IMG/VR virus record: IMGVR_UViG_3300037119_006827
Location: 1-48,962 of that record
Source of the DNA: a virus
Direction: 5' to 3' (one strand)
DNA length: 48,962 nt
Below, piece by piece: positions 21,717 through 48,300 of this stretch. The translations under genes and the position numbers were made by a program. The stretch's first letter is position 1, and each line of letters starts with the position of its first letter. Below the pieces are notes generated by a model that had not been told where the DNA came from, made no database searches, and saw only the letters and a list, made by a program, of their open reading frames with translations.

Positions 21717-21888
21717 TCTCGTGGTGCGGGTCGCGGGGTAGTCAGAAACGCGCTCTGACCTGGGCGTTGGGGTACTAGGTGTATCCGTTGTTTAGTTAAT
21801 GGTGTGTGTGTGTTATAGGGAAAGAGGAATGATGACCCGGTACACCATGCACCTGATACACCGGGGAGGGGCCCGATAGGCTCGGGGG
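21717..21888. promoter_or_regulatory. Divergent control region with repeated GGTGTA/TACACC sites
   Basis: Intergenic region between the leftward helicase and the rightward HTH gene, visibly richer in A/T than its surroundings. It contains GGTGTATC (about 21779-21786), a GT-repeat run (GGTGTGTGTGTGTTATAG) near 21800, GGTACACC near 21839 and GATACACC near 21855; the first and last form an inverted repeat. These look like operator half-sites for a repressor or activator. The TAGGCT -10 box of the HTH gene closes the region. Confidence 0.5.
21877..21882 (+). promoter_or_regulatory. -10 box TAGGCT, leaderless start of HTH gene
   Basis: TAGGCT followed by six bases (CGGGGG) and then ATG at 21889. 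Confidence 0.65.
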
Positions 21889-22386
21889 ATGAGCACTACC
21901 CAGCCCGAGACCGCCGTCGTGCCGTACGAGCGCGACTCGTACGAGGCCCGCCTGGAGGCCGCGCGCCGGGGCACCGGGAAGTTCAACGAGGAGCGCCGGA
22001 CCAAGTACCTGCAAGAGCGGCAGAAGGGGACGCCGCACTACATCGCATGCCGGCGCGCAGGGGTGTCGCCGACCACGGTCGAGCGGTACCGGACGGCCGC
22101 CGGGCCCGCATGGGGCGAGGCGGTGCGTCTGGCGCACGAGGAAGGGCTAGACCCGATCCGGGCGGTGCGTCGCGCGGCGGCGATGGAGGGCGAGCCCTGG
22201 GCGGTGCGTGCGGAGATTGGCGACGGCCGCGCGGCGCGCCCGGAGGGCGGTGCGTCCGGCGGTACGGTCAACATCGGAACCGTGGTGGTGGGCGGCGAGG
22301 CCGGCGTCGCCGGCGCTCTCGGTCAGCTCCTCGATCGGCTCCGGGAGCGCGAGCTGACGGCCGGCGCCGATGTCGACGCCGGCTGA
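21889..22386 (+). CDS. terS?: Helix-turn-helix protein, candidate small terminase subunit
   Basis: 165 residues from ATG at 21889, leaderless. A basic N-terminal helix (KFNEERRTKYLQERQKG) precedes an HTH, TPHYIACRRAGVSPTTVERY. A second helix pair follows (AGPAWGEAVRLAHEEGLDPI), then a strand-rich piece (GGTVNIGTVVVGGEA) and a final helix. HTH followed by a helical oligomerisation part resembles actinophage small terminases, but the large terminase is 6.5 kb downstream rather than adjacent, so a transcription regulator is a real alternative. Its last 240 bases are also open on the minus strand as the end of the ART-like gene. Confidence 0.6.
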   Translation: MSTTQPETAVVPYERDSYEARLEAARRGTGKFNEERRTKYLQERQKGTPHYIACRRAGVSPTTVERYRTAAGPAWGEAVRLAHEEGLDPIRAVRRAAAMEGEPWAVRAEIGDGRAARPEGGASGGTVNIGTVVVGGEAGVAGALGQLLDRLRERELTAGADVDAG

Positions 22387-22734
22387 CGCCGACGGCCCGA
22401 GGCTGAGGCGGTGCGGTGCGATAGGCCGGTAGAGCACGAGTACCGGGTCGTCGGGGCCCCATTCAGCGGAGCCGACCGAACCGTGCTCTACGGGTAGGCC
22501 GGTGATGTCGACCGTCCAGACGTCGCCGGTGCCGGTGGCGGGCGGTGCGTCCGACCATAGCCAGACGGCGCCGTTAGCGTCCGGGTCGTACTCGTCCGGG
22601 GCGGGCACGAGACCGTGCGCCCGGATGGACGCACGGACCGCGGGCGGTGCGATGTGGTAGGCGGTCGACGCCGGCGCCGTAGCGCCGTGGTCGGTCGGTA
22701 GGTAGGCGGCCGATGCGGCCGGCGCTAGGTGCAC
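22147..22734 (-). CDS. Small protein with ADP-ribosyltransferase/KptA-like N-terminal features
   Basis: 195 residues from GTG at 22734, leaderless (TATTCT six bases upstream). Residues about 25-45 read AYHIAPPAVRASIRAHGLVP, then GAVWLWSDA and PVLVLYRPIAPHRLSL. This is the pattern of small ART-like or RNA 2'-phosphotransferase-like actinophage proteins (conserved His after Tyr, helix, HGL, then an aromatic strand). The last 80 residues are Arg/Ala-rich and lie antisense to the HTH gene, so they may be a low-constraint extension. NAD-dependent activity is inference only. Confidence 0.6.
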   Translation of the reverse strand: MHLAPAASAAYLPTDHGATAPASTAYHIAPPAVRASIRAHGLVPAPDEYDPDANGAVWLWSDAPPATGTGDVWTVDITGLPVEHGSVGSAEWGPDDPVLVLYRPIAPHRLSLGPSASAGVDIGAGRQLALPEPIEELTESAGDAGLAAHHHGSDVDRTAGRTALRARRAAVANLRTHRPGLALHRRRATHRPDRV

Positions 22735-22740
22735 GGCGGA

Positions 22741-45306: not shown

Positions 45307-45309
45307 CCT
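45304..45309 (+). promoter_or_regulatory. -10 box TAGCCT made from the stop codon
   Basis: TAG stop of the 407-residue gene plus CCT; seven bases (GTAAAGC), GTG 45317 of the giant gene. No Shine-Dalgarno is present. Confidence 0.65.
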
Positions 45310-45316
45310 GTAAAGC

Positions 45317-48300
45317 GTGGCACCCCCGTCCTCGTTCTTCGGCACGTCCTCCTCCAGCAGCGGTGGCGGCGGGGCCAGCAGCTTCTTCACGGCCGGCAAC
45401 GCCGGGGCGAGCAACGCCTACAGCACGCCCTACAACGCGCCGGCCACCGACGAGTCGACCGCGATCAAGCAGCAGCTCGCCGCCGTCGCGCGCCTCGCCA
45501 ACAGCAACCGCGAGGAAGACAAGGAGATGGCGCGCAAGTACCTGGAGGACAACCAGCAGCTCTACACGGACGACGAGCTGGCCGAGTACGGGCTCCAGAA
45601 GCCCGGCCACGACGACCGGTCCCTGTGGGAGAAGGCCAAGGGCTCGGCGATGGGTGCCGTCCAGGGCGCGATGGGCGTCATCAGCCGCCCCCAGCAGTTC
45701 ATGGCCCACGCCCTGAACACCCTCGGCACCGGCGTGGCCGGCGCCGTCGAGGTCGCCCAGGGCGACGTGAAGGCCGGCGACTTCTTCGGCGGCATGAAGG
45801 AGATGACCGAGGACACCTTCGGCTCGCTCGCCGACATCAAGGGCAAGAACGACATCAACACCCGCGAGATGCTGAACCTCGACAAGGGCGCCGGCGGCTC
45901 CGGCTGGGTCGGCGACTACCTCATCGGCGGGCTCGACATGGCCGGCATGATCGCCACCGACCCCCTCTCGTGGATGGGTGCCGGCGGCACCGCCGGCGCT
46001 CGTGCCGCGGGCATGAAGACGGTGGAGCGGGCTGCGTCCCAGGGGCTCGTGCGGGCCGAGCTGCCCCAGCTCCTGCGCGCCGAGGGCCGCCAGGCGGTCA
46101 CGGCTGCCGAGGAGAAGGTGCTCCGTGACCTCGCACGCCAGACGGCCGAAGAGGCTGGGGCCGGCACGCGCGGCCGCCTCGCCACCTGGGCCCTCCGGGG
46201 CGACCAGAAGACGGGCGGGGTATTTACCCGCTGGAAGGAGGGCGCCATCCACGACGTCGCCACCGGGGCCAAGGAGCAGGGCCGGCTCAGCTCGCGCTAC
46301 TGGTCGCCCACGGGGCTCGTGGACGAGAGCGGCAAGGCCCTGTCCGGCGGCGCCCGCATCGGCGAGAAGAACATCGACGCCATCCTCGCGGGTGGTCAGC
46401 GCGGCTTCAAGTTTGGCGGCCAGACCCTCGTCGGGGCCGACAAGTACCGGGGCCCACTGGAGGCTCGCGGCATCCTCAACAGCCGGCCCCTCGTGGAGAA
46501 CACCGCCAAGACGGCGGCCGAGGTCAGCCATGCCGACACGCTCACGCAGATGGAGAAGCTCCAGCAGCGGATGGCCGAGGTCGAGGAGAGCAAGACCGCG
46601 TGGGCGTCGAAGTCCAGCGAGCGCCTGCCCGGCGCCGAGGAGGAGCTGGCCCGCCTCACCGAGGAGTACCAGGGGCTCGCCGCCAAGCTCATCGACGCCG
46701 ACCCCGAGGTCTACAACCCGGCGCAGATGGTGGACAACCCTGAACTGGCGAAGGCCAGCCAGGAGCAGATGCGCCACGAGCACAAGCTCAAGCAGATCGA
46801 GGCCGAGCAGGCCAAGCTGGACGAGGCCGACAAGGCTGTCGACGCACAGCGCGCCGACCTCCAGAAGCAGATCGAGAACCTCCAGGCGACGCGCGAGAAC
46901 CTCTACGCCGACCCCAAGTTCAACGCCTCCGGCCCTCGGGTCCTGGAGGATGCGAGCGCCAACCTCGAAGCGCAGATGGACAACCTGCGCAACCAGCTCG
47001 ATGAGCTGGACGCCAACGACGACTACGCCGACCGGATGGCCGACCTGTCCGAGCAGTACGAGCAGACCGCTCGCCTGGCCGACGAGGCCGCCACCACGCC
47101 GAAGAAGGTGTACCAGGAGGGTTCGATGTCCCCGAACCCCGAGCTGGACGTGCGCGCCAAGATTCCGGCCGAGCCCGAGGTCGAGGCCGAATTCTTCCCC
47201 GGCGAGCCCGTCAACCCCGACGCCAAGAACATCACCGCCCAGGCGCCCAGCGGCCGGCCGCTCGGCACCGTCGACTACTACGTGGACGACAACGGTGTCG
47301 TGCAGATCGACAGCATCCGGGTCATCGGCGAGCGCAAGGGCGTCGGTCGACGGCTCATCGCCGAGGTCGAGAAGGCCACCGGCCAGCCCGCCGGAAAGTT
47401 CGGTCCGGGGGATCAGGTCGAGGAGGGCGCCGAAGGATTCTGGAAGGCCGTCACCGGGCAGGACGTGGACCCTGTGACCCGCCAGCCGATCCCCGGCAAG
47501 GGCCCGGACCCCTTCATGGAGGGCGACAAGCCGTTCTTCCACGGGACCCCCGACGGGTTCGACGGCGAGCTGCGCGGTGGAATTGACGACCCGAACACGC
47601 TCGGGTTCGACAACGACGCCGGCCCCGGAATCTACACGGCCGACCAGGAGGGAGTCGCCAACGAATTCTCCCGGCTCATGGGGGACCGGGCCACGAACCC
47701 GCAGACCAACACCGTCCACTGGAAGGGCGACCACCCGCCGCAGTTCCTCGACATGCGCGCCGGGCCCGAGACCATCCCCGAGGATGCGATCGCGCACCTG
47801 CGCCAGTGGTTCGCGGCCCGCGGCGCGGAGCTGCCCCCGTTCGAGGAGGGCCGCTTCGCCGGCGCCAACGAGGGCACCGCCTTCGACTGGTTCCAGTCGG
47901 TCAAGCGCGAGGCGCGCACGCTCGCCGGCGACGACGCCGAGCAGCTTGACGAGCTGGCTCGCGGGTTCAGCAAGAAGATCGAGGACGCCGGATTCGACGG
48001 CATCGAGCACGAGGGTCTCGCCGTCGCTATGGGCGACGAGTCGAACACGCACCGCATCATCTTCCGCTCGGAGAACATCGAGAGCCGTCCCGCCTACAAG
48101 CGGGCGATGGACAAGAGCCCCGAGGCGAAGGCCCCGCCTAAGCCCAAGGCTCCCAAGGCGCCCAAGGGCCCGCAGCCCCAGAAGATTTCGGTGCAGATGC
48201 GCGGCGGCTCCGGCTGGGACGCGCGCCGGTTCCAGCTCGAAGCTGAGCTGCCCCCCGTCCCCGAGGGCCACACGCGTATCTTCAAGTCCGCCTCGGGCGG

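What the first reader, a model, noticed from the sequence alone, without database searches (positions are those of the whole stretch)
21877..45319. Late genes start leaderless: TANNNT exactly 6-7 bases before the start codon, often built from the previous stop codon
Seen directly at plus-strand starts 21889, 25994, 26507, 27623, 27773, 28099, 28589, 30755, 32546, 34707, 35068, 39667, 40114, 43478 and 45317: TA and the final T are invariant, and the gap is always 6 or 7 bases. The middle three bases vary (GGC, CTC, GGG, ACG, GCC, GTC, GAG, ACT, GAT, ACC, TGC), so this is not a Shine-Dalgarno. At 27611, 30743, 32534, 40102 and 45304 the previous gene's TAA/TAG stop is the first half of the -10 box, and at 35056 and 43465 the last T is shared with the stop. 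Each late gene thus appears to have its own promoter starting RNA at the A/G of the start codon. Leaderless mRNAs are known in actinobacteria; a virion gene block built almost wholly this way, with stop codons doubling as promoter elements, is unusual.
Basis: partly seen in the sequence, partly recalled or inferred. Interest (0 to 1): 0.8.

Follow-up and report, generated by a model that had tools for sequence, protein, structure and literature searches.

The report
Leaderless virion genes in actinobacterial podophages
Many virion and lysis genes of this phage and of a large family of relatives seem to carry their own minimal promoter placed so that the messenger RNA starts exactly at the start codon, often re-using the previous gene's stop codon as part of the promoter, a start mode known in the bacterial hosts but not described as the layout of a phage's late genes in the papers I could search.

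Summary
All 15 named starts have TANNNT 6 or 7 bases upstream. On the + strand 18 of 54 TANNNT hexamers sit at that distance from an ATG/GTG, against 0-4 at any other single gap. Fourteen of 24 predicted virion-strand genes have it, against 4 of 616 non-start ATG/GTG codons. It is not universal: capsid, scaffold and g34072 use Shine-Dalgarno leaders, and several genes overlap the previous one.

Comparison turns it into a family trait. In related IMG/VR loci (>=60% GC) the virion strand shows 124 sites against 27 expected, the opposite strand 20 against 17. The choice is gene-specific: portal, g39667, adaptor and g43478 have it, scaffold and capsid do not. Sites carry an unselected extended -10 element (TGn, 31% versus 8% of control hexamers), so they look like promoters. 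A third re-use the upstream stop codon in three fixed registers. Two lysis genes on the opposite strand have it too. Nine unrelated actinophages have 4 in 223.

TANNNT leaderless starts are established in Actinobacteria and leaderless late mRNAs in Thermus phage phiYS40, so this is a new variant of a known kind. No RNA 5'-end data exist here.

The parts
21877..21882 (+). -10 box TAGGCT, gap 6 to ATG 21889 (small terminase-like gene 21889-22386)
   Evidence: ortholog in G001 at 6699 also has it (TACTAT, gap 7); phrog_4044
25981..25986 (+). -10 box TACTCT, gap 7 to GTG 25994 (23-codon hydrophobic ORF; weak as a gene)
26495..26500 (+). -10 box TAGGGT, gap 6 to GTG 26507 (368 aa gene); absent in G001, where the ortholog has no box
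27611..27616 (+). -10 box TAACGT, gap 6 to ATG 27623; TAA is the stop of 26507-27613
   Evidence: ortholog in G001 lacks it
27760..27765 (+). -10 box TAGCCT, gap 7 to ATG 27773
   Evidence: G001 ortholog TACACT gap 7
28086..28091 (+). -10 box TAGTCT, gap 7 to ATG 28099; last T shared with the TGA stop. In G001 the box lies about 12 bases further from the stop but still at gap 7
28577..28582 (+). -10 box TAGAGT, gap 6 to ATG 28589 (31 aa membrane-like peptide; G001 has a 36 aa one in the same place with a box at gap 6)
28940..28945 (+). TAGCCT 12 bases before the large-terminase start 28958: likely promoter with a very short leader
   Evidence: TTGTAGCCT conserved in G001
30743..30748 (+). -10 box TAGACT, gap 6 to GTG 30755 (tail fibre); TAG is the terminase stop
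   Evidence: conserved in G001
32534..32539 (+). -10 box TAGGAT, gap 6 to GTG 32546; TAG is the stop of 30755-32536
   Evidence: identical in G001
34042..34047 (+). TAGACT (TAG is the stop of 33397-34044) 24 bases before GTG 34072, with a GAGGAG Shine-Dalgarno between: candidate leadered promoter
   Evidence: conserved in G001
34695..34700 (+). -10 box TAGGCT, gap 6 to ATG 34707
35056..35061 (+). -10 box TAACCT, gap 6 to GTG 35068 (portal); last T shared with the TAA stop
   Evidence: G001 TAGCCT; portal starts across the family
37195..37200 (+). TAGCAT (TAG is the portal stop) 33 bases before scaffold GTG 37234, with a GAGAGG Shine-Dalgarno: candidate leadered promoter
   Evidence: conserved in G001; family extended -10 boxes at gap 34-36
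38374..39582 (+). major capsid gene (SU10-type), Shine-Dalgarno start GAAAGG, no leaderless box; 0 of 50 high-GC relatives have one
39617..39654 (+). strong hairpin after the capsid gene ending directly upstream of the next -10 box (dG -30.9 kcal/mol, z -5.3)
39655..39660 (+). -10 box TATGCT, gap 6 to GTG 39667
   Evidence: family
40102..40107 (+). -10 box TAGGCT, gap 6 to GTG 40114 (SU10 adaptor); TAG is the stop of 39667-40104
   Evidence: identical box in G001
43465..43470 (+). -10 box TAGGCT, gap 7 to GTG 43478; last T shared with the TAG stop
   Evidence: G001 TACCCT gap 6; family
45304..45309 (+). -10 box TAGCCT, gap 7 to GTG 45317 (1215 aa large virion-block protein, open at the window end); TAG is the stop of 44083-45306
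   Evidence: identical in G001
5638..5643 (-). -10 box TAGGGT, gap 6 to GTG 5631 of the lysis amidase (4903-5631); TAG is the stop of 5641-6600
   Evidence: ortholog in G001 (75% aa) also has it
3272..3277 (-). -10 box TAGCAT, gap 7 to ATG 3264 (2980-3264, 94 aa holin-like membrane protein); TAG is the stop of 3275-4102
   Evidence: ortholog in G001 (63% aa) has TAGGCT gap 6

Best explanation
These are minimal promoters for the host's main RNA polymerase: a -10 element (TANNNT, often with an upstream TGn) and no -35. It lies so close to the gene that RNA starts on the A or G of the start codon, because the last T of a -10 box normally sits at position -7, which is gap 6. The mRNA is leaderless and is bound by the ribosome at its 5' start codon without a Shine-Dalgarno. 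In this podophage family such promoters head particular virion and lysis genes. Genes that follow and overlap would be translated by coupling from the same RNA, while scaffold and capsid keep longer leaders with Shine-Dalgarno sequences. In a high-GC genome TA-containing triplets are scarce, so the upstream stop codon is re-used to make the promoter. Shown by sequence: spacing, conservation, gene specificity, late-function bias, TGn, stop re-use. Inferred: transcription from these sites, leaderless translation, host sigma factor, coupling.
For: Spacing peak at gap 6/7 only. 14/24 late starts versus 4/616 non-start codons. Box kept at 11 of 13 orthologous starts in a related phage, including one where it moved about 12 bases relative to the stop but kept gap 7. 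Family: virion strand 124 observed versus 27 expected, opposite strand 20 versus 17. Gene-specific: portal 30/114, g39667 26/70, adaptor 20/86, g43478 15/33; scaffold 0/74, capsid 4/107 and 0/50 at high GC. TGn before the box 31% versus 8% of control hexamers (P = 1e-19) and A/C at position 5 (P = 8e-15), neither used for selection. The post-capsid hairpin ends within about 20 bases of the next start in most relatives, leaving little room for a leader. TANNNT about 12 bp upstream marks leaderless genes in Actinobacteria (PMC3160421); TANNNT -10 and 22% leaderless mRNAs in Streptomyces avermitilis (PMC8780764); the same arrangement was tested by mutation in Deinococcus (PMC12340547). DNA polymerase relatives and isolated relatives are actinophages.
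Against: No RNA data. Ten of 24 late genes lack the motif, so upstream genes could still be read as long polycistronic RNAs with these as extra starts. Gene starts were partly chosen with the motif in view, though the gene-call-free counts do not depend on this. The host is inferred, not known. Two boxes (26507, 27623) are not conserved in the nearest relative.
Confidence: 0.87

Rival explanations
1. The boxes are recognised by a phage-made or phage-modified transcription factor (a late-specific sigma factor, or an activator that replaces the -35 contact), which gives the late timing.
For: Boxes follow late function (virion and lysis) on either strand; no -35 is present; relatives encode WhiB and proteins annotated as RNA polymerase-binding.
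Against: No sigma factor, RNA polymerase or WhiB match among the window proteins scanned with Pfam or PHROGs (not every small ORF was scanned). TGn-TANNNT is the ordinary host-type extended -10, which needs no -35.
Confidence: 0.25
2. The late block is mainly one or a few long polycistronic RNAs; the boxes are weak internal starts that only top up some genes.
For: Ten of 24 late genes have no box and several overlap their upstream gene; no 5'-end data.
Against: A strong hairpin follows the capsid gene just before the next box in most relatives. Boxes are gene-specific and kept over roughly 40% protein identity. Boxed genes mostly lack a Shine-Dalgarno in the short gap, so readthrough RNA would initiate them poorly.
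Confidence: 0.3
3. The motif is a translational signal: a stop codon at a fixed distance before a start, for termination-reinitiation, with the final T a coincidence.
For: About a third of family sites overlap an upstream stop codon; 8 of 14 in the window.
Against: The rest do not, yet keep TANNNT at the same gap. The final T is invariant and TGn is enriched. In G001 the box before the 28099 ortholog has moved away from the stop while the gap to the start is unchanged.
Confidence: 0.04
4. Chance: TA-containing stop codons happen to precede closely packed genes.
For: Stop codons supply TA dinucleotides near starts in a 69% GC genome.
Against: Spacing, shuffle and non-start controls; nine unrelated actinophages with similarly packed late genes have 4 of 223.
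Confidence: 0.01

Closest known systems
Leaderless genes of Actinobacteria with TANNNT about 12 bp upstream of the start (PMC3160421; S. avermitilis TSS map PMC8780764)
   Same: Same hexamer, same distance, no Shine-Dalgarno.
   Different: There scattered across host genes; here concentrated on virion and lysis genes of a phage family, with stop-codon re-use and a conserved choice of genes.
-10 region adjacent to ORFs in Deinococcus-Thermus (PMC12340547)
   Same: TANNNT a few bases before the ORF, working without a -35, shown by mutation.
   Different: Bacterial genes of another phylum; experimental, whereas ours is sequence only.
Thermus phage phiYS40 leaderless middle/late mRNAs (reviewed in PMC3594737)
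   Same: A phage whose late genes are mostly read from leaderless mRNAs.
   Different: Unrelated phage and host. There IF2 rises and IF3 falls during infection; no such evidence here. Our family mixes leaderless and Shine-Dalgarno genes.
Arthrobacter Jasmine-type, Microbacterium Shocker and Cellulosimicrobium DS1 podophages
   Same: Homologous capsid and portal (about 20-31% identity), same two-armed genome; Shocker has 6 boxed starts of 38.
   Different: Jasmine and DS1 have lower GC, 1 boxed start each, and mostly Shine-Dalgarno starts.

Membership tests
Actinobacterial-type leaderless genes | TANNNT -10 box about 12 bp upstream of the start codon | tested here: met
Actinobacterial-type leaderless genes | No Shine-Dalgarno between box and start | tested here: met
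   12 of 14 boxed window starts have no 4-base SD match; the AGGA at 32546 is within the box and the GGTG at 26507 spans its end
Actinobacterial-type leaderless genes | Primary transcript 5' end at the start codon | not testable with these tools
   needs RNA 5'-end mapping
Actinobacterial-type leaderless genes | Actinobacterial host | tested here: inconclusive
   best polymerase hits and isolated capsid/portal relatives are actinophages; host of this record unknown
Extended -10 sigma-70 family promoter | TGn directly before the -10 hexamer | tested here: met
   family 31% versus 8% in control hexamers; in the window G at that position in 10 of 14 but T in only 2
Extended -10 sigma-70 family promoter | -35 element dispensable or absent | tested here: met
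   no conserved position at -35 distance in 72 sites; no classical sigma-70 pair in 26000-45500
phiYS40-type leaderless late phage strategy | Late genes lack leaders | tested here: met
   for 14 of 24 late genes, by sequence only
phiYS40-type leaderless late phage strategy | Infection changes IF2/IF3 to favour leaderless mRNA | not testable with these tools
   needs infection experiments
SU10/P22-like podophages | P22/SU10 portal, SU10 capsid and adaptor | tested here: met
   PF16510, PF17236, PF24175

The most novel reading that the evidence does not exclude
In a widespread family of actinobacterial podophages the late programme is organised by translation start mode: portal, adaptor, tail and lysis genes on minimal leaderless promoters, capsid and scaffold on leadered Shine-Dalgarno mRNAs, and infection shifts the ribosome pool towards leaderless initiation so that start mode itself sets late timing and virion stoichiometry.
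Probability: 0.15. Interest if true: 0.82.

Novelty: new variant of a known kind. Interest (0 to 1): 0.55.

Why it matters
It gives a sequence-level rule for gene starts and transcription units in a large, mostly uncultured phage family. It also shows promoters fused with stop codons under strong compaction. An isolated relative (Shocker) makes a direct test possible. If start mode separates capsid/scaffold from portal/tail genes, it is a simple way to set virion protein ratios without many regulators.

Tried and rejected
A -35 element was sought in 14 and then 72 aligned sites and not found. Rfam found nothing in the window. The genome-contig scan gave no related prophage or host, and near-identity search in phage records gave nothing. 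Chance and a purely translational reading were rejected by the controls listed. The idea that the motif follows the + strand was rejected: two lysis genes on the minus strand have it. The idea that every late gene has it was rejected. The P23-45 paper was not held, and for phiYS40 only a review could be read.

Full report
What the window is. The window is a 48,962-base IMG/VR virus record, 68.7% GC. The right arm (21889 to the end, probably continuing at 34-2379) codes virion genes on the + strand: large terminase, tail fibre, P22/SU10-type portal, scaffold, SU10-type capsid, SU10 adaptor and a 1215 aa protein. The left arm (2376-21707) codes replication genes on the minus strand: family A polymerase, helicase, nuclease, primase parts. 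The nearest isolated relatives are Arthrobacter Jasmine-type, Microbacterium Shocker and Cellulosimicrobium DS1 podophages, and the polymerase is closest to actinophage polymerases. The host is therefore probably an actinobacterium.

The observation. All 15 named sites are present. Without any gene calling, 18 of the 54 + strand TANNNT hexamers stand 6 or 7 bases before an ATG or GTG; other gaps have 0 to 4 each. Of 24 virion-strand genes 14 have it, against 4 of 616 non-start ATG/GTG codons, and shuffled upstream sequences never gave more than 3. I saw the motif when choosing some starts, so the gene-call-free count is the safer figure. Alignment with a close relative, G001 (IMGVR_UViG_3300037119_006958, capsid 87% identical), shows that protein similarity begins at most of these starts. 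The claim that almost the whole block is built this way is too strong: capsid, scaffold and g34072 have Shine-Dalgarno leaders, and 40764, 42358, 44083 and 34484 overlap or abut the previous gene.

Conservation. In G001 the box is kept at 11 of 13 orthologous starts. At the ortholog of 28099 the box lies about 12 bases further from the stop codon, yet is still 7 bases from the ATG, so the gap to the start is what is kept. In IMG/VR relatives found with capsid and portal alignments, de-duplicated loci of at least 60% GC have 124 virion-strand sites against 27 expected from other gaps, and 20 against 17 on the opposite strand. The choice is gene-specific: portal 30/114, g39667 26/70, adaptor 20/86, g43478 15/33; scaffold 0/74, capsid 4/107 with none of 50 at high GC, g40764 2/73. 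Relatives of low GC show little, partly because TANNNT is common there by chance.

Why promoters. Two features not used to pick the sites separate them from other TANNNT hexamers in the same loci: TG at -3/-2 before the box (31% versus 8%, P = 1e-19) and A or C at the fifth position (74% versus 47%, P = 8e-15). TGn is the extended -10 element, which lets polymerase work without a -35; no -35 is seen. In the window itself only the G of TGn is common (10 of 14). A canonical -10 box ends at -7, so gap 6 puts +1 on the first base of the start codon. In most relatives a strong hairpin follows the capsid gene and ends just before the box of g39667 (26 sites, median -28 kcal/mol against about -8 for portal, adaptor and g43478). 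If it terminates capsid RNA, the next gene must start its RNA within about 20 bases.

Stop codons as promoter parts. In the window five boxes begin with the upstream gene's TAA/TAG and three share their last T with it. Over 200 family sites upstream stops peak in three registers: -3 (TGA forming TGn, 6%), 0 (TAG/TAA forming TA, 18.5%) and +5 (last T shared, 8.5%), against 0.7%, 5.1% and 2.0% in control hexamers. The leadered scaffold and g34072 starts also have TAG-built boxes further upstream.

Late function, either strand. The minus-strand amidase (5631) and a 94 aa holin-like membrane protein (3264) have boxes on the upstream TAG stop, and their G001 orthologs (75% and 63%) have boxes too. 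The pattern thus follows virion and lysis functions.

How unusual. Nine unrelated actinophages (Giles, phiC31, Min1, TM4, R4, Shady, Kurnik, MO526, GodonK) have 4 boxed starts among 223 annotated genes of the stretches examined. TANNNT leaderless starts are established in Actinobacteria (PMC3160421; PMC8780764) and were tested in Deinococcus (PMC12340547). Leaderless late mRNAs are known for phiYS40 (PMC3594737). Searches of the held papers found no report of this layout in actinophages; papers outside that library were not searched.

Verdict. 'Every late gene' is overstated. It is a new, family-wide variant of a known kind; RNA 5'-end mapping is still needed.

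Noticed in passing
window 22390-25740: Minus-strand genes written in an extreme word bias: CGGCCG 25 per kb versus 1.7 elsewhere, GCCGGC 13.7 versus 3.4, long GTG runs. The homologous genes of G001 (7187-10560; up to 54% aa identity) contain no GGCCG at all and favour other words (CTCGCT, TCGCCT, TCGTGC). 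Words occur in all three codon frames. Unexplained.
   Followed up: partly
window 39617-39654 and the same place in most relatives: Strong hairpin between the capsid gene and the next gene, directly upstream of a leaderless -10 box, with different sequence but similar form across relatives; candidate terminator.
   Followed up: partly
window 2980-5631 (-): Likely lysis genes (amidase, holin-like protein) with a metallophosphoesterase lie at the end of the replication-strand arm, not in the virion arm.
   Followed up: partly
L005 4651, 11938, 15129: A relative (capsid 47%) has few boxes; those it has are preceded by AGTCCGTTCAGTCCG-like repeats, possibly another activator site.
   Followed up: no
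L009 (Shocker) 520-900 and 3570: Repeated GCTACCCTAA boxes, several at gap 6 to a start codon, near the left end.
   Followed up: no
window 5641-6600 (-) and 20304-21707 (-): Primase zinc-finger part and primase/helicase-like part (DUF5906) are encoded as separate distant genes.
   Followed up: no
window 30755-33376: The proteins of 30755 and 32546 share similarity (29-30% cross hits in G001), suggesting a duplicated fibre gene.
   Followed up: no
window 13720-14751 (-): Fusion of a DUF4406 domain with a dATP/dGTP diphosphohydrolase N-terminal domain.
   Followed up: no
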